This document shows, piece by piece, positions 9,350 to 61,883 of a stretch of 64,000 nt of DNA. Source of the stretch: Euborellia annulipes (taxonomy: Eukaryota > Arthropoda > Insecta > Dermaptera > Anisolabididae); contig JAKCPI010001877.1 of NCBI GenBank assembly GCA_023213315.1, positions 62,001 to 126,000 of the forward strand. Direction: 5' to 3'. Under the pieces are notes generated by a model that was given only the letters and a program-made list of their open reading frames with translations, did not search any database and had not been told where the DNA came from. Made by a program: the position numbers and the translations under genes. Numbering within the stretch: position 1 is the stretch's first letter; each line of letters starts with the position of its first letter.

Positions 9350-10226
9350 GTTTCCGCGACTGGATGTATGGAAGATAATTTTCTCGGTTGAGTCGCGTGT
9401 GATGTGAGATTCTCGACTTTCCTCTCCTTTTGGAGCATTTTCAAGAGTATGGAATTAGGTGGGAATTGTTGGGGTAGATTGTTTACGGGGTCGCAGTCTT
9501 GCTGGTCCCCAGGTCAATTTGGATGCCTCAGAGGCTTGGTTTGGTCTCTGAGAGCAGGAGGAAGGTTGAGGTGTGTGTAATTGCGTTTGTGTTCGGTTTG
9601 GGTTGACTAAAGGGCCTCAGTCTGCCTCCCCAAGTCGATGTGTTATTGGTTTGGTTAGTGGATGTGTTAGGAGATTGGGTTTGTTTCTGAGATTTGGATT
9701 GGGTGTGTGTATGTGTGATCGTGTCTGTGTTTGATTTAGGTTGACTTTGGGGCTCAATCTGCCTACTCCCCCAGTCGATGTATTGCCGGATGTTTCACAA
9801 GCCTCGGAAACATCCGGCAATACATCGACTGGGGGAGTAGGCAGATTGAGGCCCCAAAGTCAACCTAAATCAAACACAGACACGATCACACATACACACC
9901 CAATCCAAATCTCAGAAACAAACCCAATCTCCTAACACATCCACTAACCAAACCAATAACACATCGACTTGGGGAGGCAGACTGAGGCCCCGTAGTCAAC
10001 CCAAACCGAACACAAACGCAATTACACCACTCCAACCTTTCCTCCTCCTCTCAGAGACCAAACCAAGCTCCTGAGGCATCCAAACCGACCTGGGGACCAG
10101 CAAGACCGCGACCCCGTACACAATCCACCCCAACAATTCCCACCTAATTCCATACTCTTGAAAATGGCTCCAAAAGGAGAGCCGAAACGTCGAGTAAATC
10201 TCCACATCACACGACGGAACTTATCT
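9350..10226. mobile_element. Large near-perfect palindrome, Penelope-like fold-back
   Basis: Two arms of more than 400 bp (about 9350-9796 and 9807-10226) are inverted around a 10-base spacer at 9797-9806. Each arm holds two diverged tandem copies of about 137 bp (ACATCGACT..GGGG..GGCAGA.TGAGGCCCC). The palindrome is much richer in G+C than its flanks, which are TA repeats on both sides. A hammerhead-like core lies near each outer end. The orientation (core, then outer sequence) matches the smaller fold-backs, so I place it with the Penelope-like class. Open frames within are accidental. Confidence 0.6.
10153..10196 (+). ncRNA. Hammerhead-like motif, degenerate box 1
   Basis: TACTC (10153-10157) pairs with GAGTA (10192-10196) as stem I. 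Box 1 is TTGAAAA, two changes from CUGANGA. GGCTCC / GGAG-AGCC with an AAAA loop forms stem II with a small bulge. GAAAC-GTC follows at 10184-10191. The mirrored motif on the minus strand of the left arm (about 9405-9450) reads GGAAAGTC, so it is more decayed. Confidence 0.4.
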
Positions 10227-10229
10227 TCA

Positions 10230-10292
<63 letters not shown>

Positions 10293-12080
10293 TTTTATAT
10301 TTATTCAAACATCAAAGATTCTATTTCCACGTGCAAAAAAAAAAGAACTACACCCTAAATGCTATTACAAAAGGGTCAGAAGAATGCTTCATATTATTGG
10401 AAAAGAGGAACTACCTCATAAAATCCATCCACTCATTATAACCAATTACAAATGAACATATCTAAATTTTATTTAACCTAAAATTGCCTATTATTAAATA
10501 GACGATGTTATGCATGAAGGAACCAAGCGCCATTATGATCGGAATTGAGATAAGATCGCCATCTTGTAGGGAAAACCTCTTTATTTAAATCATAACATTA
10601 TTACTCTGTGCACTTTTTTTTTTATATAAAACAAGAAAAAATTGGAAAATGGGAAATCAATAGACGCATGTTAAAAACTGAGAACAATAGTCTATTTATT
10701 TAGTAATTGAAGATTTGAATCATTTAAAATTATTTTAAAAATTATATTTTCTTAATTTCAAAATTGAATAATGAAATTATTTTTTATAATTCGTCATATA
10801 TATTAAATTTCAACTTTCTTTTTTTGTCGTCACGGCTTGTAACGCGACATGCTGATAGAGGAGCGAAAAAATTTGAGGCCATCAAGTTTCACTTTGTTTG
10901 TTTACAATTGTGCAAATGAAATGCCCCTTATCTCAGATTTAGATTAATGGCGCTTGGTTCCTTCGACCAAATATGATTTTGTCAAAAAAAAAACTCCCTT
11001 AAATCTTCTGTCTTCGCCATTATTAATCCCGCGGTGCGGGATGCCTTAAATAGATTAACAAAAGTTTTTATTTTAACTTTCGAAATGGAAAGAAAATAAT
11101 TTATTTGTCATAAGATCACCAGCCATTTTGCCAGCGATATCGGAAATGAAAAAAAGCTAGAACTAAAATCATCTTTCTCTAGAGGTTTTTCTTTTCATTA
11201 TTATGCAGTAGCTTGAGGTTACTTGTCGTACTTTAGGCTGTTTGAGGTGCCTTGGGAAAAGTCTATTATAAATAATAAAATTTTTGTTGGAAACTTTATT
11301 TTTGGCCGACTAAATTACAGGTTTCTGTCTGTAAAGCCATTTTCAAGGACCGAAATACACAACGTTCTATTGTATTATAGATTTTTATATAAACCGTAAT
11401 TCATTATGGCAATAAGGGGTCGTCCACATATTACGTAACGCCTCAAATATCTCAAAAACTATTCGACAAAGAAAAACGAAAGTCCCATTTACATAATTAC
11501 TTTTTTATATTCTAAAAGAATCTATAATCAAAGTGATTATTTTTTTTTTCGAGAGAATTATACAGCAAAGAATGTAGTTGAGTGAAAAAAAAGAGAAAGT
11601 AGGATGAGAGTAAAGCAGTGCAATATAAATCCATAAATAAATCCTAGTAATAATTAATCCTCTCCGAATACGTAAGCATTTGTTGTTTAATTCAATAAAT
11701 TCACTCTAATCTGAAAATCTCTATTAACATTGAATTCAATTCATCCCCCTGCCATTTGAGGATATCGTTATCCTCCTCCTCCTCCTCCTCCGCCTCCGCC
11801 TCTTCTATGAAATTGTAAATTTTCATTAAAATATAATTACATTTACTTGGATTCGATTTGCATGTTTATTTATTTATATTTCTAAGTTAGTTATTTATAA
11901 TTATCTAAATATCGTTGATTAGATGTGTGGGAGGAAGATCGTCAAATTTATTTTGTTGTTTTGGCAAATAAACTCTCGGAATTACTTACTTAATAACATT
12001 ATATGTACGTATTTAAACAAGAAATTATGAAATCTTCTTTTATGAAAATAAATATTGAGATAAAATGTTTGAGTGTCTAA
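10230..12080. other. AT-rich DNA; TA repeat and CCT repeat
   Basis: A (TA)n tract lies at 10235-10290. (CCT)n/(CCG) triplets lie at 11770-11802. The remainder is A/T-run DNA without a gene; frames are short and low-complexity. Confidence 0.5.
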
Positions 12081-12082
12081 AG

Positions 12083-12354
12083 CAGTGGTTTCCAAACTTT
12101 ATGTTACCACGCCTCCCTTAAAAATAATTAATCTTATGATGCCTCCCCCCTCCCCCATTTTGTAAATTAATAAAAAAACAAAAATTTTTAATGCTAAAAA
12201 ATATAAATATATATAAAAATATTTTTTTTATTAATTCTTATTTATATTAAAACTAGCAATCATTTGGTCCTGGGGGCCAATATTCGCGCCTCTCCTTAGA
12301 CTAGTCCGCGTCTCCCTAGGGCCTCCCCAGCGCCTCACAGTTTAGAAAACGCTG
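12083..12354. mobile_element. hAT-type MITE
   Basis: Starts CAGTGGTTTCCAAACT and ends AGTTTAGAAAACGCTG, imperfect inverted termini of the hAT CAGNG type, 272 bp apart, without coding. The left flank is GTCTAAAG (12075-12082). The right flank here (GCATAAGG) matches only 5 of 8, while an exact GTCTAAAG follows a second right end at 14253; see findings. Confidence 0.6.
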
Positions 12355-12356
12355 GC

Positions 12357-12584
12357 ATAAGGGTATTTTATGGCTGGTGGAATTCGTATAATATCAGGAA
12401 TGAAAGTTAGAAAAAACAAAGCCAGAATTTTTTCGTTAAAAATATATTTTAATAGCTGAAGATTCGGCCTTGGTCAAAGTCATCCTAGGATGACCACTAA
12501 CAGCTCCGAGGATGGCTTTGAACAAAGCTGAAACGTCAGCTGTTAAAATATATTTTTAAAGATTTTTCTAACTTTCATTCCTGA
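12357..12584. mobile_element. Penelope-like mini fold-back A
   Basis: Inverted arms from TCAGGAATGAAAG (12394) to CTTTCATTCCTGA (12584), preceded by a roughly 37-nt unpaired extension (ATAAGGGTATTTTATGGCTG). The arms and extension are homologous to the ends of the protein-bearing element at 14381-15856, which ties this palindrome to a Penelope-like source. No coding sequence remains. It abuts the hAT right end. Confidence 0.7.
12498..12545 (+). ncRNA. Best hammerhead-ribozyme-like motif
   Basis: Stem I is TAACAGCT (12498-12505) with AGCTGTTA (12538-12545), 8 bp perfect. Box 1 is CCGAGGA (CUGANGA with U4 to C). Stem II is GGCTTT / AAAGCT with loop GAAC (12514-12529), 6 bp with one G-U. Box 2 is GAAAC (12530-12534), then the cleavage triplet GTC (12535-12537). 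There is no loop for stem III; ACGT is self-complementary, so two molecules could share a 4-bp stem III. Type I hammerheads of Penelope-like elements are the known precedent. The U4 change may reduce activity. Confidence 0.65.
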
Positions 12585-14252: not shown

Positions 14253-14481
14253 GTCTAAAGACAAACAGAATAATTCTTTGAGTACTTTGCATCCAATCCT
14301 GGTCAACTCAAGGTTTTTTTGGTTGACCTATTTGGTCATACAAATGGGTTGAGCTTTTAGTTTATTATAAATTTAAAGACTGTATAAGGGTATTTTATGG
14401 CTGGTGAAATTTGTATCAGGAATGAAAGTACGAAGAAAAATGCAGCCAGAATTTTTTTCTTTAAAAATATATTTCAACAGC

Positions 14482-14523
14482 TAGCTGACATTTCGGCTTT
14501 GGTCAAAGCCATCCTCGGAGCTA
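14482..14523 (-). ncRNA. Hammerhead-like motif in the 3' region
   Basis: On the minus strand: stem I TAGCT/AGCTA (14519-14523 with 14482-14486), box 1 CCGAGGA (14512-14518), stem II GGCTTT-GACC-AAAGCC (14495-14510), 6 bp perfect, then GAAAT (14490-14494) and GTC (14487-14489). It is sense with respect to the Penelope-like ORF, as expected if it processes the element's RNA. Confidence 0.55.
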
Positions 14524-14913
14524 TAAACAATGAAACGAAACATTTCTTTTTACAATTATTGCTTAACAATCATTTTTTTAAAAAACTTTTTTCCTCCTAG
14601 AATGAAAATCATACCTGCTGTTGGTCTTCATATACATATATTTTGAATTGTATCCGGTATTAAAATTAATTTTAGGATATAACATCAGGGAAAAAAGTTT
14701 TCTGTTCAAGATCAACTTTTTCCTTCTTCTATCACCAATACAATATATTTATTTTTTTTTTTTTTTTTGTGCCTAATGTGATAATTGACTCAGGGCAGTA
14801 CAATTTTATCTAATGTATTTTTAGATTTTGTAGTTAGTTTTTATACAAATGAATTTTAATCCCGGATTTATTAAACATGTTTCTTATTTTTTGCGCTAGG
14901 TGGCATAGCAGGC

Positions 14914-15600
14914 TTATTTTGTGACATTTTTTAAAACACCTCTATATAAAAGCACGGTGGTATTATAATCTTTTTTAAAATTCACCGTCCTGTTTAGGTA
15001 GATATGGATGGATTCCAAAATAAGCCTTTTAAACAGATTTTCCTCTGTCTGAAGTATTTCGACGGACTCAAAATCGAAGACATGATTTAGCTCAGTCGCA
15101 TGCCGAGACAGAGCAACAGTATCTTCTTTATTTTTAACATTGCTCTTGTGTTGTGAAATTCTTTTGTGAAGATACTGGCACGTCTGCCCAACATACGACA
15201 GCTCACAGTCCTTACAATTTATTTTATAAATCACATTTGATTTCTGCAACAAGGGAGTTGGAGTCTTGTTGCTGTACAAGAAGGACAATGTATTGGCTGG
15301 TCTAAAAGCGATTCTTAGTCCATCATTCAACCGGCATAGATATTTTTTTATATCTTCAGACAGGCTCGGAATATATGTCAAGCTTTTATAGACAATTTTA
15401 TTAACATTAGTTACAGGCATTATTTTGTTATTATTAGTCAGGTTGGAAGGATTCACATTCATCTTTTTCGACATGTAAATATTGATTATTTTACAAATAA
15501 AATATCTAGGATAGCTGTTATCCATTAGCAGTCTTTTGATTTTATTTATACACTCCTGATGGAATTCGGGGTCGGACAATCTAATTGCTCGGTCAATCAA
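14914..15600 (-). pseudogene. Penelope-like protein C-terminus with GIY-YIG nuclease
   Basis: An uninterrupted frame of 228 codons is the C-terminal part of a Penelope-like retroelement protein. Residues 1-45 (IRLSDPEFHQE..INKIK) match the segment after the reverse transcriptase; residues 46-120 are the linker. From 121 a GIY-YIG nuclease domain follows: VIY at 123-125, cysteines of NCKDC near 129-132, YVG at 136-138, R147 in KRISQHK, H167 and catalytic-type E196. In these elements the nuclease nicks the target for primed reverse transcription. The RT palm is missing because the frame runs into the inverted arm at 15600, so the first methionine is not a real start. No frameshift in the remaining part suggests a fairly young insertion. 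Confidence 0.85.
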
Positions 15601-15746
15601 GTTAAAAATAATACCGGATACAATTCAAAATATATGTATATGAAGACCAACAGCAGGTATGATTTTCATTCTAGGAGGAAAAAAGTTTTTTAAAAAAATG
15701 ATTGTTAAGCAATAATTGTAAAAAGAAATGTTTCGTTTCATTGTTT

Positions 15747-15790
15747 ATAGTCCGAGGATGGCTTTGACCAAAGCCGAAACGTCAGCTAGC
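15747..15790 (+). ncRNA. Hammerhead-like motif in the inverted arm
   Basis: CCGAGGA (15752-15758), stem II GGCTTT-GACC-AAAGCC (15760-15775) and GAAAC-GTC (15776-15783), then AGCTA. One base of the upstream stem I strand is lost compared with the partner arm at 14519-14523 (TATAGT instead of TATAGCT), so stem I has a bulge. Unlike the partner, this copy keeps the ACGT dimer segment. Confidence 0.5.
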
Positions 15791-15954
15791 TGTTGAAATA
15801 TATTTTTAAAGAAAAAATTCTGGCTGCATTTTTCTTCGTACTTTCATTCCTGATACAAATTTAAAGACCTTTACGAATTTAGATTCTTAAATATTTGAGT
15901 TTAAAGAACAGATCAGATAATTACTCAAAAGAAGGACATTTAAAGAAGAAAAAA

Positions 15955-21458: not shown

Positions 21459-21972
21459 GGTGTGTGGGTGTGTGGGTGTGTCTGTGTTCAATTTTAAGCA
21501 TGAAGGAATTGAGCTAGGAGGTTGAAATTCTATATTTAAGTTAAACCCCCCGGGACCGGAAAAATAAGCTTTTAATCAAAATCGGCCAAAGAGTACTAGT
21601 ACTTTACTGATGTACTTTTTCAGTTTTTTTCGATTTTCTCAAAATTTGCTCCAACGATTTTTTTTAAAATTCAAAAATCAATTATTTTTTAGATTCTCTA
21701 TAAAATGTATATTCTCATTTTGTGATTGAAATCTTCTGAAGACCACTTTACTCTTGTACTCCATAGAAAAGATAGGAGAAATGGTTGCCATGGTATCAAA
21801 ATATAAAAATATTTTCCCATACTTATAAATTTTACATCTTGAATTCAATTGTACCCTACTGTCGGAAACTAAATACATGTCGACACAAAAATCTGGTGTG
21901 ACAAGCACAGTACACAACTTTCGATTACCGAAGGTAAGAGAAAGTTGTGTGCTGTGCGCCAGTCACACCAGA
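21280..21972 (-). mobile_element. Family H element, complete copy
   Basis: Both terminal hairpins are present. The microsatellite is expanded into a (TG)n/(GTGGG)n tract at 21426-21485, which makes this copy long (693 bp). The 5' hairpin (21892-21972 on the minus strand) is intact with perfect outer arms. Confidence 0.75.
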
Positions 21973-21974
21973 TT

Positions 21975-22420
21975 TTTTAAATATAAAATATGTAATGTTG
22001 ATCCTTCTCTATCATCATCAGGACAATTAATTTTCTATGGGAAAAATACCGGAAATTACATGGAAATGGTGTATGACGTCATACGTGTGTGAGTGTGCAC
22101 TGGTGGACATTTATTTCCATTTGCGTGTGGAGAGAGGATTTTAGGTTTATAAAATGAGAAAGAGAGAGAGAAAATTTGATCAGTGATATGGATTTAGGAG
22201 TTTAAATTCACAGCTATTAATATCGCTCTCTCTCTCTCTCTCCCTGGAGAGATGGCTCTCTCTGGCTTTAAATCGAAACGTTTTATCGTTATTTAGGACT
22301 TTAATATATAGCAGTCAGAAGTCTTAGGGACAGAAAGGAAAAAATAAAAAATTTCAGGGAGAAATTTGGGAGAGGAGAAACAAAAAATTATATCCGATGA
22401 CAGATGCCATTTTATTTTTT
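21975..22420. other. AT-rich DNA with GA/CT tracts
   Basis: (GA)n at 22157-22169 and (CT)n at 22226-22240 are inverted to each other. Nothing else is recognised. Confidence 0.45.
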
Positions 22421-23500: not shown

Positions 23501-23503
23501 AAA

Positions 23504-23801
23504 AAAAATAAAATAAAAAAAAGATTTTTAAAAAATGCTTTTATTTAAATTGAACTAAAAAGAGAGAAATAAGAGAGAAATAATTTAATTGTTCTTGTTA
23601 AAATTTTTTAATATTTGACTTAAAATAAAAGCGTGGGGCGCTTCGAAGTGATTCCGAGGCTCGCGCCCCACGCTTTTATTTTAAGTCATAAATATTAAAA
23701 AATTTTAACAAGAACAATTAAATTATTTCTCTCTTATTTCTCTCTTTTTAGTTCAATTTAAATAAAAGCATTTTTTTAAAAATCTTTTTTTTATTTTATT
23801 T
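23504..23801. repeat. Fold-back of 138-bp arms beside a satellite
   Basis: Near-perfect inverted arms (23504-23641 and 23663-23801) with a 21-bp spacer. The arms are AT-rich outside and end inside with GCGTGGGGCGC / GCGCCCCACGC. The outer arm sequence TTAAATAAAAGCATTT recurs at 25292, just past the satellite array, so fold-back and array may be one element. No hammerhead-like core seen. Confidence 0.7.
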
Positions 23802-23846
23802 TTATTTTAAGCTTTTTAGTCTTTTAGTCTTATCAAAAATCATCAA

Positions 23847-25277
23847 TATGATAAAGTACCACATTAGTTTGGCCTGTATTGATTTGGTTCAATTGAAAAA
23901 TTATTCATTATCATAAAAAAATGACTCGTAAATATCAAAATTCAAAACTATAGTTAATAGGGCCTTATTTGCGTGAGGCTTCAAATAAAGTACCACATTA
24001 GTTTGGTCTATTTTGATCAAAACCACCATATAGTGGCGTCATCAAAAATGACTCTTAAGTATTACATTTCACACCTTTAGCCCATCGGGAAGTCTTTTGA
24101 AATTACATTAATTCGCGAAGGGTTTCAAATAAAGTACCACATTAGTTTGGTCTATTTTGATCAAAACCACCATATAGTGGCGTCATCAAAAATGACTCTT
24201 AAGTATTACATTTCACACCTTTAGCCCATCAGGAAGTCTTTTGAAATTACATTAATTCGCGAAGGGTTTCAAATAAAGTACCACATTAGTTTGGTCTATT
24301 TTGATCAAAACCACCATATAGTGGCGTCATCAAAAATGACTCCTTAAGTATTACATTTCACACCTCTAGCCCATCGGGAAGTCTTTGGAAATTACATTAA
24401 TTTGCGAAGGGTTTCAAATAAAGTACCACATTAGTTTGGTCTATTTTAATCAAAACCACCATATAGTGGCGTCATCAAAAATGACTCTTAAGTATTACAT
24501 TTCACACCTCTAGCCCATCGGGAAGTCTTTTGAAATTACATTAATTTGCGAAGGGTTTCAAATAAAGTACCACATTAGTTTGGTCTATTTTGATCAAAAC
24601 CACCATATAGTGGCGTCATCAAAAATGACTCTTAAGTATTACATTTCACACCTCTAGCCCATCGGGAAGTCTTTTGAAATTACATTAATTTGCGAAGGGT
24701 TTCAAATAAAGTACCACATTAGTTTGGTCTATTTTGATCAAAACCACCATATAGTGGCGTCATCAAAAATGATCCTTAAGTATTACATTTCACACCTCTA
24801 GCCCATCGGGAAGTCTTTGGAAATTACATTAATTTGCGAAGGGTTTCAAATAAAGTACCACATTAGTTTGGTCTATTTTAATCAAAACCACCATATAGTG
24901 GCGTCATCAAAAATGACTCTTAAGTATTACATTTCACACCTCTAGCCCATCGGGAAGTCTTTTGAAATTACATTAATTCGCGAAGGGTTTCAAATAAAGT
25001 ACCACATTAGTTTGGTCTATTTTGATCAAAACCACCATATAGTGGCGTCATCAAAAATGACTCTTAAGTATTACATTTCACACCTCTAGCCCATCGGGAA
25101 GTCTTTTGAAATTACATTAATTCACGAAGGGTTTCAAATAAAGTACCACATTAGTTTGGTCCATTTTGGTAAAACCAAACTCACAATTTGCGTCATCAAA
25201 AATGACTCTTAAATATCAAATTTCACACCTCTAGCTCATCGGGAAGTGTCCTTAACAAAGCCATAAAGTTGGTGACC
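23847..25277 (+). repeat. 144-bp tandem satellite, about 10 units
   Basis: Unit starts (TCAAATAAAGTACC) fall at 23981, 24125, 24269, 24414, 24558, 24702, 24846, 24990 and 25134, a period of 144 (once 145); a diverged unit begins near 23847. Middle units differ by a few bases, the first and last much more, which is the usual edge decay. Each unit holds CACCATATAGTGGCGTCATC with a short palindrome. Shared variants recur every third unit. Confidence 0.9.
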
Positions 25278-26210: not shown

Positions 26211-26520
26211 TCAAAATTATTAATCCACGGTTATTGGATCCATAAAATGACGCTTTATCTTATCTACATCATCTAATTTTCAATTTTGTTTTTATAAACG
26301 TTAAGTTAGTAAGCGCAGGGTTGTCCAATCGGCTTGCTTATTATCCGGCCTTTTTTCTATTCTTCAGTAATCAAATTGTTGCATAAACAATTTATAGCTG
26401 AGTTGTTATATTAATAAGAGGGTAAAAATGAGAAATGCAGCTAAGGTTATTTCTTTATTTGGTTAATTCACACAGCTGACACGGAACCGAAACGTCAGCT
26501 GTGTGAATTAACCAAATAAA
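26211..26520 (+). repeat. Direct duplication, left copy
   Basis: 310 bp, nearly identical to 26810-27118. It contains the left part of a fold-back (TTAATTCACACAGCTGAC / GTCAGCTGTGTGAATTAA) but is cut at ACCAAATAAA, where a SINE begins. An A-run precedes both copies. Confidence 0.85.
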
Positions 26521-26809
26521 GGCCCACGGGGCGTGGTGTAGAGGTTAGCGTGCTAACCTCATATACCAAACGTCGCGGGTTCGGACCCCAGGCAGTCCGA
26601 TGATTTTATTTAAGCATCTGGTATCCAGATGGCTTAAATAAAAATGCCTGGACCCTAATATATATAAATTCATAAATAACGGTTATCGTAAATGTCTTAT
26701 ATGGCCTGAGCTGCCGAAAAGACAGTGTGAATGTGTGTGTGAGTGTGAGTGTGAATGAGAAAAAAGTGTGAATGTTTAAAAAAAAAAAAACAAAAAAAAA
26801 AAAAAAAAA
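26521..26809 (+). mobile_element. tRNA-derived SINE
   Basis: The head has an RNA polymerase III type A box (TGGTGTAGAGGTTAGC) and B box (GGGTTCGGACCCC), spaced as in a tRNA. The body (GGCCTGAGCTGCCGAAAAGAC) and a GTGTGAATG-rich tail with poly-A follow. Similar tails occur at 43663-43735 (minus) and 13395. It lies exactly between the two duplicated copies, so no simple TSD is visible. It would need LINE enzymes to move. Confidence 0.75.
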
Positions 26810-27118
26810 TCAAAATTATTAATCAACGGTTATTGGATCCATAAAATGACGCTTTATCTTATCTACATCATCTAATTTTCAATTTTGTTTTTATAAACGT
26901 TAAGTTAGTAAGCGCAGGGTTGTCCAATCGGCTTGCTTATTATCCGGCCTTTTTCTATTCTTCAGTAATCAAATTGTTGCATAAACAATTTATAGCTGAG
27001 TTGTTATATTAATAAGAGTGTAAAAATGAGAAATGCAGCTAAGGTTATTTCTTTATTTGGTTAATTCACACAGCTGACACGGAACCGAAACGTCAGCTGT
27101 GTGAATTAACCAAATAAA
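26810..27118 (+). repeat. Direct duplication, right copy
   Basis: Right copy of the unit at 26211-26520. Here the fold-back continues uninterrupted to 27161, so this copy represents the state before SINE insertion. Confidence 0.85.
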
Positions 27119-27161
27119 GAAATAACCTTAGCTGCATTTCTCATTTTTACCCTCTTATTAA
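26976..27161. mobile_element. Penelope-like mini fold-back with 12-bp TSD
   Basis: Flanked by AGTAATCAAATT at 26964-26975 and 27162-27173. An unpaired extension of about 34 nt (26976-27009) is followed by inverted arms from TAATAAGAG to CTCTTATTA. The centre is CAGCTGAC-ACGGAACC-GAAAC-GTCAGCTG: box 2 plus GTC are present but box 1 is collapsed, and the arms meet at the GTC that would be the cleavage site. The core is repeated in the duplicate at 26471-26500. Confidence 0.7.
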
Positions 27162-27174
27162 AGTAATCAAATTA

Positions 27175-29590: not shown

Positions 29591-29622
29591 TAACTTTTAA
29601 ACGAGATGAGATATCCATTTAA

Positions 29623-29829
29623 ATTCTTGAAATGGATAGCTGATGATATTAAAACAGCTTGGACGGGAGCTTTTCGAGAGCTAGTCGCACTCATCTTCTG
29701 GGAACGCAAATGATCAATCTGTATGCCCTGAAGATGAGTGCGACTAGCTCTCAAAACGTCGGCAACAAAATTTTTTATTATATCTAGCTGCGGTTCCTGG
29801 GAAGGCTTCAGTCCGAGCTTCTATTTTAA
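29623..29829. mobile_element. Probable Penelope-like mini fold-back
   Basis: A perfect 23-bp inverted pair (GAGAGCTAGTCGCAC.. near 29673 and its complement near 29730) sits within longer diverged arms. CCATTTAA at 29615-29622 and 29830-29837 is a possible degenerate TSD. Only the inner arms are strongly conserved. Confidence 0.55.
29724..29764 (+). ncRNA. Hammerhead-like motif with canonical box 1
   Basis: TGCC (29724-29727) and GGCA (29761-29764) form a 4-bp stem I directly against CTGAAGA (29728-29734) and GTC (29758-29760). Stem II GAG/CTC is short with a large loop. Box 2 reads AAAAC instead of GAAAC, so activity is doubtful. Downstream (GGCAACAAAATTTTTTATTA) resembles the sequence after the core at 3451. 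Confidence 0.45.
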
Positions 29830-29894
29830 CCATTTAACATTTTCACCGAAATATTTGGATTATCGATCTTTGTTAATACCATTGGAAAGTATTA

Positions 29895-32590: not shown

Positions 32591-32602
32591 AGGTATAATT
32601 AT

Positions 32603-33023
32603 TTGATGAAATGGTGGATGCAGTCCAAATGAATATATTAAATAAAAGCAACTTGTGTTTTCTTTCTTGGACATAAAGTGACAGGTAGTATGTCGTTTTT
32701 TTCTGGTATAATTATTAAAAATCAATAAATTTTCAATAATATTTATTTTTTGGTTTACAGATGGGCTATTATGTTTCGGCCACCATGAGAGCCACCAAAA
32801 AAGAATTTTGAATTTTGACTAAATATCATCTTGTATTATATATATATGTATATTGTTTCAGTTCTGATGATGGCTCTCATGGTGGCCGAAACATGATAGC
32901 GCACCTGTAAACCAAAAATAAATATTTTTGAAAATTTATTGATTTTTAATAATTATAAGAAAAAAAACAACTACCTGTCACTTTATGTCAAAGAAAGAAA
33001 ACACAAGTTGCTTTTATTTAATT
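32603..33023. mobile_element. Penelope-like mini fold-back with 12-bp TSD
   Basis: Flanked by AGGTATAATTAT at 32591-32602 and 33024-33035. An unpaired extension of about 38 nt (32603-32640) precedes inverted arms of about 150-165 bp (AAATAAAAGCAACTTGTG ... CACAAGTTGCTTTTATTT). The left arm's inner end is GGCTATTATGTTTCGGCCAC, the right arm's is GTGGCCGAAACATGATAGC, so both arms hold the box 2 region. No coding sequence. Size, TSD length and extension match the protein-bearing element at 14381-15856. Confidence 0.8.
32864..32900 (+). ncRNA. Hammerhead-like motif with perfect CUGAUGA
   Basis: CTGATGA (32864-32870), stem II GGC..GCC (32872-32874 with 32885-32887, extendable by a G-U pair), then GAAAC (32888-32892). 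The following ATGATA departs from GTC; a cleavage triplet ATA would be needed, with a poor stem III. Probably decayed or inactive. Confidence 0.45.
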
Positions 33024-33039
33024 AGGTATAATTATGTTG

Positions 33040-36220: not shown

Positions 36221-36225
36221 TATTC

Positions 36226-36675
36226 CTTAAATTTCTATGTAGTTTTTCAGGAGCATGCGCTGTTCGACGGCGGAGTCTCAGGAATTGTTGGAAGAATGAA
36301 ACTCAAACCATCAATTCATAGCAGAGACATTTATTGGTTGAGGATGCATCCTTTCGTTTCGACCAATTGTAGGCCTTCATAACCTTTTTATTACTTGTAA
36401 ATTATTAATAAAATGTCTCAAATTTCTAGACTTAAAAGGTTCTAAATAAGGCATACAATTGGTCGAAAAGATAGGATTTTATTTATTTATTATTTATTAT
36501 TATTATGGACCTAAGACACTTTGAACTGCGACCGAAACGATAGGATGCACCATCGTCAACCAATAAATGTCTCTGTTTTGAATTGATGGTTTGAGTTTCA
36601 TTCTCCCAACAACTCCTAAGAATCCGCCGTCGAATAGCGTAAGCACCTGACATAACTACATAGAAATTTTAGAAA
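36226..36675. mobile_element. Fold-back with GAAACGA motif
   Basis: Inverted arms of about 145 bp (36226-36370 and 36525-36675) share AAATTTCTATGTAG, GACGGCGGA.TCT.AG and ACATTTATTGGTTGA. The inner ends read GACCGAAACGATAGGATG (plus, near 36520) and its counterpart on the minus strand. Box 1 and a proper GTC are missing. Arm layout resembles the Penelope-like fold-backs, but no TSD was confirmed. Confidence 0.5.
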
Positions 36676-36906
36676 TACATGTGTATTATTATAAACAGGT
36701 GTAACATCCGCTTTAAGATTTTTAAATGGTTATTATTACGCCCTCTCAACCGCCAGCCATTGAGCTAAAATAGTTACAAAAATATTTTTGCAGTTAGTAA
36801 ATAATAAATTAACAAATTTACCACAGAAAAAGGCATCCATAACAATTTCTTATAAAATTCAAATAGAAATTATAAGTATCACATAACACAAAGAAGCATC
36901 ATTATT

Positions 36907-37770: not shown

Positions 37771-37772
37771 AA

Positions 37773-46514: not shown

Positions 46515-47450
46515 AATCCAGGGATATTTAATTATATCTATTGGAAAGTGATATTTTTATAAGTCTTTTCGGCATCTTAGGCCATATAGACTCTTTATTT
46601 AATTATACGATATTTATACCATTTGATATTCAAATGATTTAAATAAATATTTTTCAGAAAAATATTAATCAAAATTAATTTTTGAATTCTAAATTCCCTA
46701 ATTATTTGTTAGACAAAGAGTTAGTCGATTACTTCTTTATTAAATAGCAACAAATTGAAAATATTAAAGTTGAAAATTCAAAGTGTTAAGTCATAGAGAA
46801 GAGAACACTTCCTTGCTTTTAAGCCATTAATACTAAGATCTCGCAAAAGTTGGTTAAGAAAACAATAACCATTAAGAGTAAATGGTTTCCTCCAATGTAA
46901 TGAATAGGCCAGCTACCTTTAAAATCAATGACATGAATTTGAATTTCAATTATTTTCTAATACAGTGAATTAAAAAAAAAATCGATTGAAATATGAGAGC
47001 AATTTGCAACTTATTTAATTTTCCTATTTTGTTGTTGTTGTTGTTGTTGTTATGGGGAAATAATAATAATAATAATAAATAAAAGAGACGGATGAATAGT
47101 CAATCGAACGGAAATTGACATCTCTCTATATACAGGGAGGCCCAATTTGTTATTTTATCAAGGTTGAATTGAATATCATATTTTGATAGTAGGAAAACGT
47201 TTTTTTTTTTTTTTTTTTTAATCATTTTGATAAAATAATGATTTGAAATATCGAATTATGATCCTTTCTAAATAAACACAAAATTTTAACTGTTCATATA
47301 TTATAGGTATAAATTCAATCATAATCAAGATTATTTATAATACAAAAATGTTCGTTTTTTTTTTTTCTATATTTTTGTTAAATAGAAAGCTGGGAAATAA
47401 AATTACTCTGACGCTCGGGTTGCTAATTAGTATTCAATTGAAAGAAAAAA
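46515..47450. other. AT-rich DNA; SINE scrap and triplet repeats
   Basis: A minus-strand SINE tail scrap (TCGGCATCTTAGGCCATAT) lies at 46569-46587. (TTG)n at 47032-47051 and (AAT)n at 47062-47078. No gene. Confidence 0.45.
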
Positions 47451-47453
47451 AAA

Positions 47454-48066
47454 TCTGGTGTGACTGGCGCACAGCACATAACTTTCTCTTACCCTCGGTA
47501 ATCGAAAGTTGTGTTCTGTGCTTGTCACATCAGATTTTTCGTGTCGACATATATTTAGTTTCCGACAGTACGGTACATTCGAATTTCAAGATGTAAAATT
47601 TATAAGTATGTGAAAATATTTATATTTTGTTACCATGGCAACCATTTCTCCTATATTTACTATGGAATACAAGAGTAAAGTGGTCTTCAGAAGATTTCAA
47701 TGACAAAATGAGAATATACATTTCAAAGAGAATCTAAAAAATAATTGATTTTTGAATTTAAAAAAAAAATGTTGGAGCAAATTTTGAGAAAATCGAAAAA
47801 AAACTGAAAAAGTGCATCAGTAAAGTACTATTACTCTTTGGTCGATTTTGTACAAAAGCTTAGTGTCACGTCCCATGGGGGTGCCTAACTTAAATATAAA
47901 ATTTCAACCTCCTAGCTCAATTCCTTCATGCTTTAAATTGAACCAAGACACACAGATAGACCATCTCTCGAAAACCACTTTTTTGAGGACCTCAAAACGT
48001 GTAGGCCTATATCCATCAAAATATCGACATCGTATATATTAACATATATATAGAGGTAAGAGAAAA
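47454..48066 (+). mobile_element. Family H element, near complete
   Basis: The 5' hairpin is intact: TCTGGTGTGACTGGCGCAC with inner ACTTTCTCTTACC and loop CTCGG. The body is complete to TATCGACATCG, where about 35 bp are deleted, joining directly to the TATATTAACATATATA hairpin. GACA microsatellite reduced. Confidence 0.75.
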
Positions 48067-49034: not shown

Positions 49035-49087
49035 AATAATCCTGAGTTGAAGATAAATCGGGTTCAAATCCACCCAATGGCAAAAAA

Positions 49088-49215
49088 TCTGGTGTGACTG
49101 ATCGCACAGCACACAACTTTCTTTTATCCTTCGGCAAGAGAAAGTTGTGTACTGTGCTTGTCACAACAGATTTTTTGTGTTGAGATATTTTTAGTTTCCG
49201 ACAGTATAATATATA
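49088..49215 (+). mobile_element. Family H 5' end only
   Basis: 5' hairpin TCTGGTGTGACTGATCGC ... GTCACAACAGA and TTTTTAGTTTCCGACAGTA. It ends at a TATA run, with no further family H sequence until 49501. CGGGTTCAAATCCACCC just upstream (49068-49084) resembles a tRNA B box, but no tRNA can be folded. Confidence 0.6.
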
Positions 49216-49270: not shown

Positions 49271-49311
49271 CAACGTTTCGGTCATCATTTATATTGTTGA
49301 CCCGTCTTCAG
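49271..49311 (-). ncRNA. Hammerhead-like motif
   Basis: On the minus strand: CTGAAGA (49305-49311), stem II GGTC/GACC (49299-49302 with 49280-49283) with a large loop, GAAAC (49275-49279), then GTT as triplet. ACGT is self-complementary here too. Stem I is weak. Nearby repeats of TGATG hint at an inverted partner around 49340-49420, but it is not convincing. Confidence 0.4.
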
Positions 49312-50532: not shown

Positions 50533-51477
50533 GCTCCTCAGCCAGGCTATTCAGACTACCTAAAACATTCTCAATTTTCTCTGCGGAAATGACAGCCATC
50601 AAAGAAGCTATAAGATATACAATAGTTAACTCATATCAAAATATATTAATAATCACAGACTCCCAATCCACGTTAAAATCAATAAAATCCGTCAAAAACT
50701 CAAAGACTCAATAGCCTAGAATTTGAAATAGTCAATCTTCTAAAACAAGCGCATCAAACAAACCTGAATATTACAATAGGATGGACCAAAGGCCATGCAA
50801 ACAATACCGGAAACCACATTGCAGACCACCTAGCCAAACAAGCCTCTCTTTCCGGAAACCCACTCTCAGACCCCGCTCCTTGGACAGATATAATACCAAT
50901 CGTTAAAGCTCAACTCAAACAAGACTGGAAAAATAACTGGATCTACACCTCCGAAGTAAAAGGATCACATTTGGCAAGAATCAAAAACAACATAGGTCCC
51001 CCCATGGTTTCATTGCTATCCATCTCTTAATAGACCACAAATTATACTGCTCAATAGACTAAGGATAAACCATACACGCTGTCCTGCACATCTCCATAAA
51101 TTAGCAATAGTGTCCTCACCATTCTGTACATGTGACCATACAAGAATAGCCACTCCTCAACACCTCATCATGGAATGTCCACAATATAATCAGCAAAGAT
51201 ACAACCTCATCAATAAGCTCCAATCAATAGACCCGAATTTTAGAGATCCTCCCTTACATTGAAGAAAATATTAAGAAATCCAAACGAAGCAATAGTACAA
51301 GAATTCCACAATTTTATAATAGCCAACCAAATTCAAATATAACAGCATCACTCAGAAAACATTTTGTATAAGAATGTGATTTATATGAGTGTTTTTAGTA
51401 TTAATGTTATTTGTACTCTTTTATGATGGCAATGGCCACTGGCCGCCGAAAATAAATAAAAAAAAAAAAAAAAAAAA
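50533..51477 (+). pseudogene. 5'-truncated LINE with RNase H domain
   Basis: A 945-bp insertion flanked by AAATACATGAA at 50522-50532 and 51478-51488, with a poly-A end. The first frame encodes FSIFSAEMTAIKEA and IITDSQSTLKSI (RNase H catalytic E and D). After a stop comes GWTKGHANNTGNHIADHLAK (C-terminal RNase H), and then, past a frameshift near 50998, RINHTRCPAHLH and CTCDHTRIATPQHLIMECP, the C-terminal zinc finger. This order is that of jockey/I-type LINEs with RNase H. At least one stop and one frameshift make it non-functional. Confidence 0.85.
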
Positions 51478-53035: not shown

Positions 53036-53050
53036 ATTATTCATAAATAC

Positions 53051-53281
53051 TAAATAGGAGAAAAAAACAGCGCCTTTTTATCCACCATAAACACTATTTA
53101 TTTACAAATATTTCGGGTTGCTAAAGGGCAGCAAATAGTTTTGGTGGTGGATGTCGTCTATATTTTTGCCTCTGCAACCCGAAATATTTGCAAATAAATA
53201 GTGTGTATGCTGGATAAATAGGCGCTGGATTTTTTTCTCCTATTTATTAATCTCAACAACCTCCAGCCCAAACAATCAACG
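53051..53281. mobile_element. Penelope-like mini fold-back with 15-bp TSD
   Basis: Flanked by ATTATTCATAAATAC at 53036-53050 and 53282-53296. Inverted arms run from AAATAGGAGAAAAAAACAGC to its counterpart TTTTTTCTCCTATTT, and the unpaired extension of about 33 nt is at the right (53249-53281), so the element points the other way from those at 14381 and 32603. Both arms carry CAACCCGAAATATTTG, a box-2-like word; box 1 is not recognisable. Confidence 0.75.
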
Positions 53282-53299
53282 ATTATTCATAAATACAAT

Positions 53300-53865
53300 G
53301 GTAAGAATCTGGGAGCGCCTGATACTTAGGCAACTAGAGAGACAAATGGACTGAAGAGTACGCGTTTACTAGGAGCGACCATCATTGCATTCACGCATGC
53401 GCAGAAAGGAGGAGTTTTAATAGCTTTAATTTATCCACTTCTAACAAGAGGGCCGAAACAAATAATTGTTCTTATTCATATTAATTTAAATTAAGTTCAA
53501 AAAAAAAAATTCTAACTTGTTATTACAAATTATTATCCCTGGGTGCGTCTATGAACTAATAATTTAGAGTAAATATGGATTATTATAGTGTGAAAAAGAG
53601 TTAAAGTCGTCATCTCATTCATAAATTCTAAAATGTTGACATTGTTCTTGAATATAAAAATATAACTATTGGTTTATCGGAGGAAGAGAAGAAGATGGGA
53701 GCTTGATGTAATAAAGCTTCAAATGTTGTCACTTATCAGATATTTTCTCGTTTTTTTTTATGAAAATAATAAAATGTGAAATTGAGTACTAAAGATAAAA
53801 GAAATCATAAGGAAGAGATTCACTTCACTCAAAAATCCATCTTTTAATAATGATACTTATAAAAA
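53300..53865. other. AT-rich DNA without recognised features
   Basis: 53375-53420 shares CATTCACGCATGCGCAGA with a stretch near 37670. Nothing else is recognised. Confidence 0.4.
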
Positions 53866-53868
53866 AAA

Positions 53869-54533
53869 TCTGGTGGACTGGCGCACAGCACACAACTTTC
53901 TCTTACCTTAGGTAATCGAAAGTTGTGTTCTGTGCTTGTCACACCAGATTTTTTGTGTCGAAATATATTTAGTTTCCGCCAATATATTAGAAATTTAAGA
54001 TGTCAAAATTATAAACATGGGAAAATATTTATATTTTGTTACCATGGCAACCATTTCTCCTATCTTTCCTATGAAGCACAAGAGTAAAGTGTGCTTCAAA
54101 CAATTTTGAGGGCAAAACGAGAATATACATTTGAAAGAGCATCTAAAAAATAATTGATTTTTGAATTTTAATCAAAATCGTTAGAGCGAATTTTGAGAAA
54201 ATCGAAAAAAACTGAAAAAGTACATCAGTAAAGTACTAGTACTCTTTGGCCGATTTTGATTAAAAGCTTATTTTTCCGGTCCCGGGTGGTATTTAACTTA
54301 AATATAAAATTTCAACCTCGTAGTTCAATTCCTTCATGCTTAAAATTGAACACACACACACACACACAGACAGACAGACAGACAGACAGACCATGTCGCG
54401 AAAACCACTTTTTTGGATTCAGGGGACCTCAAAACATGAAGATCCATCAAAATCTCGACATCGAATTTTTGACATGAATCCAATACTTTCTCTCTATATA
54501 TATATTACATATATACATAGGTAAGAGAAAGTA
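53869..54533 (+). mobile_element. Family H element, complete copy
   Basis: 665 bp with both hairpins, AGTACTAGTACTCTTTGGCC, an expanded (CA)n(GACA)n microsatellite (54350-54390), GACCTCAAAACATG and the terminal AAGAGAAAGTA. A good plus-strand reference. No target duplication: it lies between A-runs. Confidence 0.8.
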
Positions 54534-58510: not shown

Positions 58511-58527
58511 CAGTATTTATTTATTTA

Positions 58528-58850
58528 ATATTTTTCAGGATTCTGAGTTCAATATTTAATTCTTGATGTGCCGCAGTGACACCGTCAAATACTATATGTT
58601 CAGTAGGTAAAATTAAAAATTCTTCAATTTTTAATATTTTATTAAAAGTTTATACAGTTTCGATCCTGGACCATGGTCAGATCCTAAAAATATAATACAT
58701 ACAGGATCGAAACTGTATAAATTTGCAAATAACAGTCAGCCAAAACTTTTAATAAAATATTAAAAATTAATTAAAGAATTTTTAATTTCACCTACTGAAC
58801 ATCTAATATTTGACGGTGTCACTGCGGCTCATGAAGAATTAAATATTTAT
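58528..58850. mobile_element. Fold-back, probable Penelope-like class
   Basis: Inverted arms (about 58552-58680 and 58717-58845) share GCCGCAGTGACACCGTCAAA, TGTTCAGTAGGT and TTTTAATATTTTATTAAAAG. The inner ends read ACAGTTTCGATCCTG and CAGGATCGAAACTGT: GATCC/GGATC could be stem II before GAAAC, but box 1 and GTC are missing. TATTTATTTATTTA on both sides (58514-58527 and after 58850) may be a TSD, though it is low-complexity. Confidence 0.55.
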
Positions 58851-59337
58851 TTATTTATTTATTTATTTATTATTCAAAAATTGGCAATGAAGTTAAAAAA
58901 CTTTTTCGCTATAAGATATTAATATTCGATTTGGACTTAAAAAGTCACAATTAAATTTAAGGTGCGCGTCTCGGGGTGCTAATTTTGGGACTTTCCAGCT
59001 GCCACAACTTTGAAGCTATCGACCTCAAATTTTTTTTTAATTAAAGCTATTTAAAATATCTACAAATAATAGAAGCCCTTTTTTTGATTTTCGAAAAAAA
59101 AAAAAATTTTTTTAGATTAATCGCATTAAATAAATGATATTTTAAAAAAAGGAGCTCTATAAGTTGTAGATAATTAAATTAGGAATTAGGGTTTGGACCC
59201 CGGTGTAAACCGAAACCGGTAAGCCGGTTTTTTAACTAATTTTTAAAAACCGAGAAACCGAGTTTTCCCCGAAAAACCGAATTCGGTTTTTTTTTTTAAT
59301 TTTTCTTCAGTAATACTTGTATTCAAATTATAAATTA

Positions 59338-59522: not shown

Positions 59523-59572
59523 AAATTATAAATTATTTATATTTTTTCTCCTTTTATCCAATACTTAAATAA

Positions 59573-59925: not shown

Positions 59926-60250
59926 CTGTAGATTCAGATGTTGAAAAAAACCGGTTTACCGGTTTTCCGCTTTGTAAAAAGCCGAAAAACCGGTTTTCAA
60001 AATTTTCCGGTTTTTTCCAAACCCTATTAGGAATCATTGTGTTAAAACATAATTAATTTTTTGCCTTTAATTAATTAGCTGGAAAGTCTAGAATTAAATG
60101 GAACAAGTTACGTGTATTTCAATGGGGGAACACTAACGCCATCTCGTGCCGCCTCGAGTCAATCGTGCTTTAACGGTTTTTCGAGACGCGCACCTTAAAT
60201 TGGTAGTTTAGTTGAAACATTATAAGTAGGGAAAATTAATTAATAACACA

Positions 60251-60511
60251 AGGTGATATCGTCTGCTGAGAATGCTGAATGGCGAAAATCCGAAATTGAA
60301 CAATTCGAGAAAAGGCGTTTGAAAGTATTATAGACATTTAATTAACTAGTCGGGCAACAAATGAATAGGCCAGAATCAATAGCAAAGAATGGATTTAGCC
60401 ACTTTGCCACTCAAAAGAGAAGACGTTTTAGCAACGTTTGCTAGGCTTAACACAAAAATTGAATTTTCGAGCTTTTTCCACTCAGCATACTCAGCAGGCT
60501 ATATATTTCAA
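60251..60511 (-). mobile_element. Element with 46-bp inverted ends
   Basis: GATATCGTCTGCTGAGAATG (60254) is inverted at CATACTCAGCAGGCTATAT (60488-60506), the arms continuing through GGCGAAAA..CGAAATT. The middle (GTCGGGCAACAAATGAATAG) matches 31790-31830 in reverse. Non-coding; superfamily unknown. Confidence 0.6.
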
Positions 60512-60514
60512 TAT

Positions 60515-61820
60515 TGGTATAAATATTTGAAATTTCTTAATATGTGTCTTTTTCAAAACTAATACAAATGAGCATCAAAGGGATTTATGCCAATAAATAG
60601 ACTATATTGAAACATATCACCTAATATTTTTAAACAAGTCATTTAAAAAATTTCGTGAATAGTCTATATACTATATTTTTTCTGGAAGACTAATTGTCCT
60701 CTAGGTCTCTGGATCTCCATTTACCGAGTCTTTGGTATTCTGGAGATTCCAGTTCTCTTCCCGGAGGCTAGGGAACAATTGGTCTACAGAAAAAGGCCTA
60801 TAATCATTAAAAATAATAAATAAATATTATCCTCCCCTTTTCGAATGCACCATTGCATCTCCTCCTCTCCTACACTAAAAATTTCGGGTGCCCTTAAACT
60901 TGGCATAGCCATTGGGTGGGGCTATAAATTTGTCAGTTTTTATTTTATCGGAAATTATCCAGATAAAGCAAAATAAAAAGCTACATACACTCATAACACA
61001 TACATTTATTTTTTACATAATTGGAGAGTTCGTTGCACTACTTTATTATATGTATACATATTAGTGCAATATATAAGAGTGCGGGGAAATAAAATTGAAT
61101 ACAAGAATTTGTAGATGAACAAACGGAAATTTAATCTCTATTTAATGATAAATTCAGCCAACTCCAGTATAGGAGATTTTCTTCATATGCTCGATTTAAT
61201 TTAATAAAATAAAATGAAATTAAATCTGTCTGACTGTTGTATGGTTTGATTTACGAAGTTAATTTGAAAAGAGGGCAGCCAAACGAAGGACGACTGCTTT
61301 TTCAAGCGTTTATTTGGCTAATTTTTTTTTTTTTTTTTTAATTTGTATATAGGTAGATGACCCATTTCTCTCTCCTGTTCAGCTAATGAGTTTATCCTTG
61401 AGCAAAGCCCAGCCTAGATAGATTATCAATTCAATCCCAGTTGCCAGTTAGAGGAGGGGCAGGCTTTACTTAACACTGATTGATCATTATCAAACAGTAA
61501 CCACACACACTCCGACATGCAACAAGACACATGTATCACACAATCACTCACTATTCCAGGCTATTTAGTCGATTTGCAAAAACAAAAAATATTTCCCTAT
61601 TAATTGAAAATAAGAACTGCGTACAGACGTACCAATTTTTTTTTCTGCTGTATAAGTTATATGAAAATACATGAATATGAATGGATAAAGTGTCTTCGAT
61701 CAAATTTAAGTGTCATTGGCTAGGCGATTCCCTTCATTACACAATGTCTTCTTGCATCATTACAAGTAGGACAAACACAGAGCTTCTTTCAAGCAAGCTG
61801 GTTCCCACATAATCATAAGT
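60515..61820. other. AT-rich DNA without recognised features
   Basis: T-run at 61321-61339. Several moderately complex stretches (60660-60780, 61360-61460) but no frame with a known domain. Confidence 0.45.
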
Positions 61821-61825
61821 ATTAT

Positions 61826-61883
61826 TTAATTCAACATTGATGAAGAGAAGCTCTTATGCTCCGAAATATCAGCAAAGAATTAA
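61826..61883 (+). ncRNA. Hammerhead-like motif, single
   Basis: TTGATGA (61837-61843, one change from CUGAUGA), a small stem AGAG/CTCT, then GAAATATC (61863-61870), where ATAT replaces the self-complementary ACGT and ATC would be the triplet. TTAATTC (61826-61832) and GAATTAA (61877-61883) form a distal 7-bp stem I across an internal loop. No inverted partner found. Confidence 0.4.

What the first reader, a model, noticed from the sequence alone, without database searches (positions are those of the whole stretch)
9350..61883. A dispersed set of Penelope-like fold-backs carrying hammerhead-like cores
At least nine inverted-repeat structures in 52 kb carry at their inner ends a GAAAC (or GAAAT) box, and several also CUGANGA plus GTC. 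One (14381-15856) still encodes a Penelope-like GIY-YIG protein; the others are protein-free. Four have direct 12-15 bp TSDs and an unpaired extension of about 33-40 nt at one end. That combination suggests a mobilised mini-element: two terminal repeats joined head to head with a ribozyme, moved by the autonomous Penelope-like machinery. Hammerheads in Penelope-like elements are known; a dispersed mini fold-back population with this fixed architecture is the part worth testing.
Basis: partly seen in the sequence, partly recalled or inferred. Interest (0 to 1): 0.8.

Follow-up and report, generated by a model that had tools for sequence, protein, structure and literature searches.

The report
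Head-to-head Penelope retroelement fold-backs
The nine hairpin-like repeats are mostly short leftovers of Penelope-type jumping genes, probably made when the element copied its RNA into both ends of one DNA break; this fits known biology, but the one-sided tails and ribozyme-centred junctions are worth following up.

Summary
The fold-backs are real. Four (FB3, FB4, FB6, FB8) have exact 12-15 bp direct target duplications and an unpaired 32-35 nt tail on one side only; none of 11 other palindromes tested has a direct repeat of 12 bp. FB3 encodes the C-terminal part of a Penelope-like (PLE) protein with a GIY-YIG domain. A covariance model from three FB2/FB3 sites plus a published Anolis PLE hammerhead ranked FB1, FB4, FB5 and a solo copy next in the window. 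Yet no Rfam hammerhead matches, no fold-back keeps all three canonical boxes, FB6 scores weakly, and FB7-FB9 are not found.

A dispersed mini-element is not supported: only FB2 and FB3 are close relatives, and their centres differ. Best reading: each arose at insertion. PLE protein cut both strands, both 3' ends primed reverse transcription at internal RNA sites about 33 nt apart, and two truncated cDNAs were joined head to head. Inverted terminal repeats, tail, target duplications and minimal hammerheads of PLEs are in print. Less expected are nine such structures in 50 kb and the hammerhead-like box at seven of nine junctions, in a set chosen for that box. The genome could not be searched.

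The parts
9340..10225 (.). FB1: fold-back with arms about 420 nt, 10-nt central loop, flanked on both sides by (TA)n; left tail about 31 nt (9340-9370)
10151..10198 (+). FB1 right-arm hammerhead-like motif (TTGAAAA ... GAAACGTC)
   Evidence: covariance model R1, E 0.0011; folds as two helices
9408..9451 (-). FB1 left-arm hammerhead-like motif, degenerate
   Evidence: model R2 E 0.016; not found with R1 at E<=10
12354..12584 (.). FB2: small fold-back of the same family as FB3; left tail homologous to that of FB3; no convincing target duplication
12499..12544 (+). FB2 right-arm hammerhead-like motif, CCGAGGA core, 8-bp stem I, 6-bp stem II, GAAACGTC
   Evidence: training site of R1
12451..12498 (-). 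FB2 left-arm motif, decayed
   Evidence: E 0.0043
14369..14380 (+). FB3 target duplication, left copy (AAATTTAAAGAC)
14381..14412 (-). FB3 tail, 32 nt, present on the left arm only
14413..14672 (-). FB3 left arm (terminal repeat at the 3' end of the element)
   Evidence: 98.1% substitution identity to right arm
14480..14525 (-). FB3 left-arm hammerhead-like motif
   Evidence: training site
14917..15624 (-). 5'-truncated PLE ORF: C-terminal part with GIY-YIG nuclease; aligns to residues 163-393 of P0001
15599..15856 (+). FB3 right arm (inverted terminal repeat)
15746..15790 (+). FB3 right-arm hammerhead-like motif, stem I with one base lost
   Evidence: training site
15857..15868 (+). FB3 target duplication, right copy
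26964..26975 (+). FB4 target duplication, left copy (AGTAATCAAATT)
26976..27161 (.). FB4: left tail 33 nt (26976-27008), arms 27009-27078 and 27092-27161, 13-nt centre with GAAAC; arms run into hammerhead stem I
27162..27173 (+). FB4 target duplication, right copy
26406..26521 (.). local duplicate of part of FB4, right arm cut short
29638..29829 (.). FB5: fold-back; right tail about 40 nt (29790-29829), tentative; weak 8-bp duplication CCATTTAA at 29615-29622 and 29830-29837
   Evidence: (null p 0.22)
29720..29767 (+). FB5 right-arm hammerhead-like motif (CTGAAGA ... AAAACGTC)
   Evidence: E 0.074
3440..3490 (+). solo relative of FB5, not in a fold-back; keeps CTGAAGA, GAAAC and GTC
   Evidence: (E 0.21)
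32591..32602 (+). FB6 target duplication, left copy (AGGTATAATTAT)
32603..33023 (.). FB6: left tail 34 nt (32603-32636), arms 32637-32795 and 32870-33022, hammerhead-like box at the inner ends (CTGATGA ... GAAACATG at 32864 +)
   Evidence: R1 E only 2.6
33024..33035 (+). FB6 target duplication, right copy
36221..36677 (.). FB7: fold-back with GAAACGA boxes, no clear duplication or one-sided tail; PLE assignment weak
   Evidence: not found by R1
53036..53050 (+). FB8 target duplication, left copy (ATTATTCATAAATAC)
53051..53281 (.). FB8: arms 53051-53137 and 53161-53246, right tail 35 nt (53247-53281), AC-rich; GAAAT boxes, no box 1
   Evidence: not found by R1
53282..53296 (+). FB8 target duplication, right copy
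58514..58857 (.). FB9: fold-back with GAAACTGT boxes; low-complexity flanking repeat TATTTATTTATTTA; left tail about 27 nt, tentative; PLE assignment weak
   Evidence: not found by R1

Best explanation
The fold-backs are insertions of Penelope-like retroelements of several families, each made of two 5'-truncated copies joined head to head with 3' ends outward. Proposed steps: (1) PLE protein makes a staggered cut in AT-rich DNA, leaving 3' overhangs of 12-15 nt (inferred from the duplications). (2) Both 3' ends prime reverse transcription (shown in vitro for the Anolis element in print; inferred here). (3) Synthesis starts inside the RNA, downstream of the hammerhead, at one of two sites about 33 nt apart, so one arm can carry a tail the other lacks (tail shown here; start sites inferred from the published element). 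(4) Each cDNA stops after a short run, often in or just past the hammerhead, and the two ends are joined (inferred). The hammerhead is a passenger from the terminal repeat, mostly decayed here. Each fold-back forms anew at insertion and does not move as a unit. For FB7 and FB9 the assignment is weak.
For: GIY-YIG ORF between inverted repeats in FB3; the profile search lists 116 proteins (two of them the query's own rows), 43 with RT domain PF00078, and 15 of the 18 named by organism are from insects. Direct duplications of 12-15 bp in four, about 4e-6 by chance. Tails of 32-35 nt on one side only in those four; homologous tails in FB2 and FB3, so the tail is element sequence. The tail-less ends of FB2 and FB3 fall within 3 nt of each other, as fixed start sites predict. 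Model R1 ranked FB1R, FB2L, FB4 and its duplicate, FB5R and the solo site directly after its three training sites. Published: the Anolis PLE protein cleaves and extends both strands, starts at two internal sites, the tail is the stretch between them, and the hammerhead overlaps the ORF start (PMC11167929, parts 1-2 of 4 and passages); rotifer Penelope copies have head-to-head terminal repeats, a 31-bp tail on one, and 8-10 bp duplications in some (PMC3846280, passages). From presumed cleavage site to outer end: 30-73 nt without tail (six arms) and 69-106 nt with tail (five arms) in FB1-FB5 and FB8; Anolis, by my count, 82-89 nt to its main start site.
Against: Only 4 of 9 have a clean duplication. 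In FB6 (128 and 167 nt), FB7 (143 and 135) and FB9 (127 and 126) the distances to the outer ends are longer than in the Anolis element. FB7-FB9 are not found by R1 at E <= 10 and rest on architecture and a short box; FB6 has E 2.6. The second model gave FB6 E 7.4 and none for FB7 or FB8; its hit in FB9 (58527-58593 +, E 7.2) is on the wrong strand for that arm's box. FB1 has a near-perfect palindrome with a 10-nt loop, which self-priming explains equally well. In FB9 a stretch of about 24 nt in the right arm offsets the tail, so its tail is doubtful. One-sided tails were assigned by me; a tail on both arms or on neither looks alike. The Anolis paper saw no difference in start site between top and bottom strands, which does not forbid mixed use but gives no reason for one tail per insertion. 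No intact PLE lies in the window, and no further genomic copies could be obtained.
Confidence: 0.7

Rival explanations
1. Self-primed snap-back: a single target-primed cDNA folds on itself near the hammerhead, primes its own second strand, and the hairpin is ligated to the other side of the break.
For: Self-priming is proposed for Penelope in print from palindromes at inverted junctions, there on an antisense template (PMC3846280, passages). FB1 has a 10-nt loop; in FB4 the arms begin in hammerhead stem I around a single 13-nt centre.
Against: The second arm would be a copy of the first, so both or neither should carry the tail; one-sided tails are seen in the four well-bounded cases. FB3 has an ORF on one side only, and FB2, FB5 and FB6 hold a box copy in each arm.
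Confidence: 0.18
2. One reading: a protein-free unit of two terminal repeats plus ribozyme, transcribed and re-inserted as a whole by PLE proteins.
For: Outside FB3 no PLE protein was found; metazoan retrozymes show that non-autonomous hammerhead units exist and may depend on PLEs (PMC7761336, passages).
Against: Within the window no two fold-backs share a centre except a local duplicate of FB4; only FB2/FB3 are close, with different centres. A tail on one arm only would have to be kept through transcription of a palindrome. One window cannot exclude copies elsewhere.
Confidence: 0.05
3. Ordinary inverted-repeat DNA transposons or MITEs, or unrelated inversions, with GAAAC boxes by chance.
For: The window is full of palindromes (51 rows), including a 92-bp palindromic MITE-like family in five copies. 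CGAAA[CT] occurs 75 times on both strands, 15 inside the nine fold-backs, so the bare box is weak evidence. FB7 and FB9 could be of this kind.
Against: A one-sided tail breaks terminal symmetry; 12-15 bp duplications; a PLE ORF in FB3; tail homology FB2/FB3; all nine R1 matches at E < 0.3 lie in FB1-FB5, the FB4 duplicate or the solo relative of FB5.
Confidence: 0.07

Closest known systems
Penelope elements of the rotifer Adineta vaga with inverted pseudo-LTRs (PMC3846280, passages seen)
   Same: Head-to-head terminal repeats, 31-bp tail optionally on one of them, short direct target duplications in some copies, 5'-truncated ORFs, palindromic junctions, solo repeats
   Different: The passages I saw describe mostly ORF-bearing copies, with 8-10 bp duplications; here no PLE protein was found outside FB3, and duplications are 12-15 bp
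PAc (Poseidon) PLE of Anolis carolinensis (PMC11167929, parts 1-2 of 4 and passages seen)
   Same: Hammerhead overlapping the ATG, GAAACGUC without stem III, two internal start sites whose spacing gives the tail, cutting and extension of both strands
   Different: Biochemistry on an active element; fold-backs as an end product are not described in the parts I saw; copies here are decayed
Metazoan retrozymes (PMC7761336, passages seen)
   Same: Non-coding, hammerhead-bearing, possibly PLE-dependent
   Different: Tandem units of about 150-300 bp with type I hammerheads, expressed as circular RNA; here inverted and decayed
Foldback elements and palindromic MITEs (recalled, not looked up)
   Same: Long inverted repeats, little or no coding sequence
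   Different: Symmetrical ends; here a one-sided tail and PLE sequence

Membership tests
Penelope-like elements | GIY-YIG endonuclease in a single ORF | tested here: met
   FB3 only: PF01541 E 1e-6; relatives. In the other eight no PLE protein was found, so for them this is not met
Penelope-like elements | Telomerase-like reverse transcriptase | tested here: not met
   FB3 ORF is 5'-truncated, beginning after the RT part of its relative P0001. No other PLE protein match in the window below E 1 (lowest 1.4)
Penelope-like elements | Terminal repeats, direct or inverted | tested here: met
   inverted; direct tandem copies not seen, and not searched for specifically
Penelope-like elements | Optional 30-40 nt tail at one terminal repeat | tested here: met
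   32-35 nt in FB3, FB4, FB6, FB8; about 31 in FB1; homologous in FB2; tentative FB5, FB9; not seen FB7
Penelope-like elements | Short target-site duplication in AT-rich DNA | tested here: met
   4 of 9 exact 12-15 bp; 2 of 9 low-complexity; 3 of 9 none convincing
Penelope-like elements | Minimal hammerhead lacking helix III | tested here: inconclusive
   R1 matches in FB1-FB5 (FB4 without box 1; FB2 and FB3 are training sites); FB6 E 2.6; none in FB7-FB9
Hammerhead ribozyme (Rfam) | Matches a curated covariance model | tested here: not met
   no hammerhead family at E <= 1 in the window or E <= 10 at FB2; whether Rfam detects minimal PLE forms was not calibrated
Hammerhead ribozyme | CUGANGA, GAAA and NUH together | tested here: not met
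   in no fold-back; in solo site 3451 + and at 1888 + and 49311 -
Hammerhead ribozyme | Self-cleavage | not testable with these tools
   needs RNA assay
Metazoan retrozyme | Direct tandem hammerhead units | tested here: not met
   the motifs found lie in inverted pairs or alone; the tandem arrays listed are not at these sites
TIR transposon or MITE | Symmetrical terminal inverted repeats | tested here: not met
   one-sided tails in FB3, FB4, FB6, FB8; FB7 shows no asymmetry

The most novel reading that the evidence does not exclude
The PLE hammerhead acts in integration at the DNA level: its self-complementary stems stop reverse transcription and let two opposing first-strand cDNAs anneal, so double-ended insertions close at the ribozyme. 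In addition, the two strands of one insertion obligatorily use different RNA start sites, so every fold-back has exactly one tail. This would give PLE hammerheads a role without RNA cleavage. Against the second part: no strand difference in start site was seen in vitro (PMC11167929).
Probability: 0.09. Interest if true: 0.72.

Novelty: new member of a known kind. Interest (0 to 1): 0.4.

Why it matters
How PLEs complete insertion is open: published in vitro work shows cutting and extension of both strands but leaves later steps to be validated, and the hammerhead was dispensable for insertion there (PMC11167929). If the reading is right, each fold-back is a natural record of both ends of one event: target, stagger, both start sites and the junction. 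A genome survey of such fold-backs would test double-ended priming against self-priming and ask whether the hammerhead sets the junction.

Tried and rejected
Rfam hammerheads: none; the microRNA-family matches on the hairpins there are below gathering scores. Strict core scan: three hits, two in FB2/FB3 and one (22618 +) taken as chance; 100 shuffles average 0.08, largest 2. Palindromes 20315, 23501, 30578, 35135, 37950, 38749 and the five of the 92-bp family were set aside as not PLE: no R1 match at E <= 10 and no repeat of 12 bp; very short truncated PLE copies among them cannot be excluded, and the remaining rows were not examined one by one. Site near 61853 +: GAAATATC with TTGATGA, R2 E 1.9, arms 71 of 114 identical, best flanking repeat 8 bp; left out as unproven. 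Unequal decay of FB2 arms (9 versus 3 changes) is not significant, p 0.15. Relatives in viral contigs and genome contigs: none by tblastn; the 88 pattern hits, 80 of them listed, held no PLE by tblastn at E 1e-3. Hammerhead-coded protein N-termini among 116 relatives, by two patterns: none. Plasmids, with the FB3 left arm and tail only: no match. In one search I placed the decayed left boxes of FB1 and FB2 2-3 nt off; one search gives the corrected places. The inner ends of FB7 were set by hand; the ungapped arms end 14-17 nt on the outer side of the boxes.


Full report
What is there. The window looks eukaryotic (30-33% GC; a U6atac match at 6143; insect-like PLE protein). A self-comparison for inverted repeats gives 51 rows. 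Nine structures carry a GAAA-type box in the arms or centre and are called FB1 to FB9. For comparison I took 11 other palindromes: five of a 92-bp family and six singles.

Flanks. I measured the longest exact direct repeat around each of these 20. FB3, FB4 and FB6 have 12 bp and FB8 has 15 bp. FB1 lies in (TA)n and FB9 in TATT-like repeats, so theirs say little. FB2, FB5 and FB7 have 6, 8 and 7 bp, within chance. The 11 others have at most 10 bp. Random placements gave 12 bp or more in 2.1% of 4000 and in 97 of 6000, 80 of them not of low complexity; four or more of nine at 80/6000 is about 4e-6.

Tails. In the four well-bounded cases one arm is longer by 32 (FB3, left), 33 (FB4, left), 34 (FB6, left) and 35 nt (FB8, right). 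FB1 has about 31 nt on the left. FB2 has a left tail homologous to that of FB3. FB5 (right) and FB9 (left) are tentative, and FB7 shows none. If each arm chose a start site independently and evenly, half should be one-sided; 8 of 9 has probability 0.02, and 6 of 7 without the tentative two has 0.06. This is suggestive only, because I assigned the ends by hand.

Protein. FB3 holds a 236-aa open frame with a GIY-YIG domain. The single-sequence search gave two relatives; the profile search gave 116 including those two, 18 named by organism: 15 insects (such as Neodiprion, Coccinella, Diabrotica, Ooceraea), a mite, an amphioxus and a Wolbachia assembly from a weevil. The frame begins after the reverse transcriptase part. 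No other PLE protein match in the window is below E 1.

Hammerhead. No Rfam hammerhead matches. A strict core scan found the motif in FB2 and FB3, with CCGAGGA in place of CUGANGA, plus one other site, against 0.08 per shuffle. I built a covariance model from the three FB2/FB3 sites and the published Anolis motif and searched the window without filters. After the three training sites came FB1R (E 0.0011), FB2L (0.0043), FB4 and its local duplicate (0.037), FB5R (0.074) and the solo copy at 3440 (0.21). FB2L is of the training family. The FB4 match lacks box 1, so it supports stem I and GAAACGTC only. FB6R had E 2.6; FB7, FB8 and FB9 were not found. I had noticed most of these sites by their letters beforehand. 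A second model including these hits added FB1L at 0.016. Pair counts favour the two helices, 11 of 13 pairs with changes on both sides in 8 distinct sequences, but that alignment was fitted to the model. No fold-back keeps all three canonical boxes, so most copies are probably inactive; this was not tested.

Mechanism. The published Anolis PLE protein cuts and extends both strands, starts reverse transcription at two internal sites, and the tail is the stretch between them (PMC11167929; I saw parts 1-2 of 4 and passages). If both 3' ends of one break are used, with different start sites, the product has two outward-facing 3' ends, one tail, head-to-head 5' truncations in the centre, and a duplication set by a 3' overhang. 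That is what is seen in FB3, FB4, FB6 and FB8. It is inferred, not shown, for this genome. The same paper saw no difference in start site between strands and found the hammerhead dispensable for insertion, so neither obligatory asymmetry nor a need for cleavage is supported there. Self-priming, proposed in PMC3846280 (passages), explains FB1 and FB4 well but does not predict a tail on only one arm.

Against a mini-element. All-against-all comparison joins FB2 with FB3 (81-89%) and FB5 with the solo copy (76% over 75 nt); FB3 and FB4 share 72% over 61 nt, and other links are shorter or weaker, several of them AT-rich. FB2 and FB3 differ in centre and length. In seven of nine the pairing ends within 36 nt of the box on one side or the other; in FB1 and FB3 it runs about 375 and 178 nt past it. 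The set was chosen for having the box, so this clustering needs an unselected sample.

Known and new. Inverted terminal repeats, tail and target duplications (PMC3846280, PMC8969392) and minimal hammerheads (PMC6155905, PMC7761336, PMC11167929) of PLEs are in print; I saw passages of each, and parts 1-2 of the last. Eight paper searches listed no paper whose title or abstract start describes a dispersed protein-free fold-back population; only open-licence papers are held, and PMC4209133, PMC5785218 and PMC8557442 are not. The genome itself could not be searched.

Noticed in passing
21887-21977, 37767-37860, 47449-47539, 49081-49177, 53848-53971: A 92-bp palindromic MITE-like family (AAAAATCTGGTGTGAC...), copies 88-97% alike, best flanking direct repeat 5-6 bp.
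   Followed up: partly
6143-6231 +: Match to U6atac minor spliceosomal RNA (72.4 bits, gathering score 33).
   Followed up: no
23980-25247: Tandem array of a 144-bp unit, 8.8 copies, 96% matches.
   Followed up: no
23501-23806: Palindrome with about 93% matching arms, AT-rich, best flanking repeat 6 bp; only weak AT-rich similarity to some fold-backs.
   Followed up: partly
49272-49311 -: Solo site with CTGAAGA, a 5-bp stem II and GAAACGTT, outside the fold-backs; stem I not evident; possible PLE relic.
   Followed up: partly
61853-61877 +: Weak hammerhead-like site (TTGATGA ...
   Followed up: partly
38749-40159 and 4803-7661: Longer inverted arrangements of other repeats, with internal sequence.
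   Followed up: no
50686-51030 +: ORF fragment with an RNase H domain (PF00075, E 7e-7), perhaps from another retroelement.
   Followed up: no
FB1, FB3, FB4, FB6, FB8 tails: In RNA sense the tail ends read AGAAC, ATACA, GCAAC, ATCAA and TCAACG, recalling the AC-rich start site of the Anolis element (ACAACACA); seen by eye, not tested.
   Followed up: no
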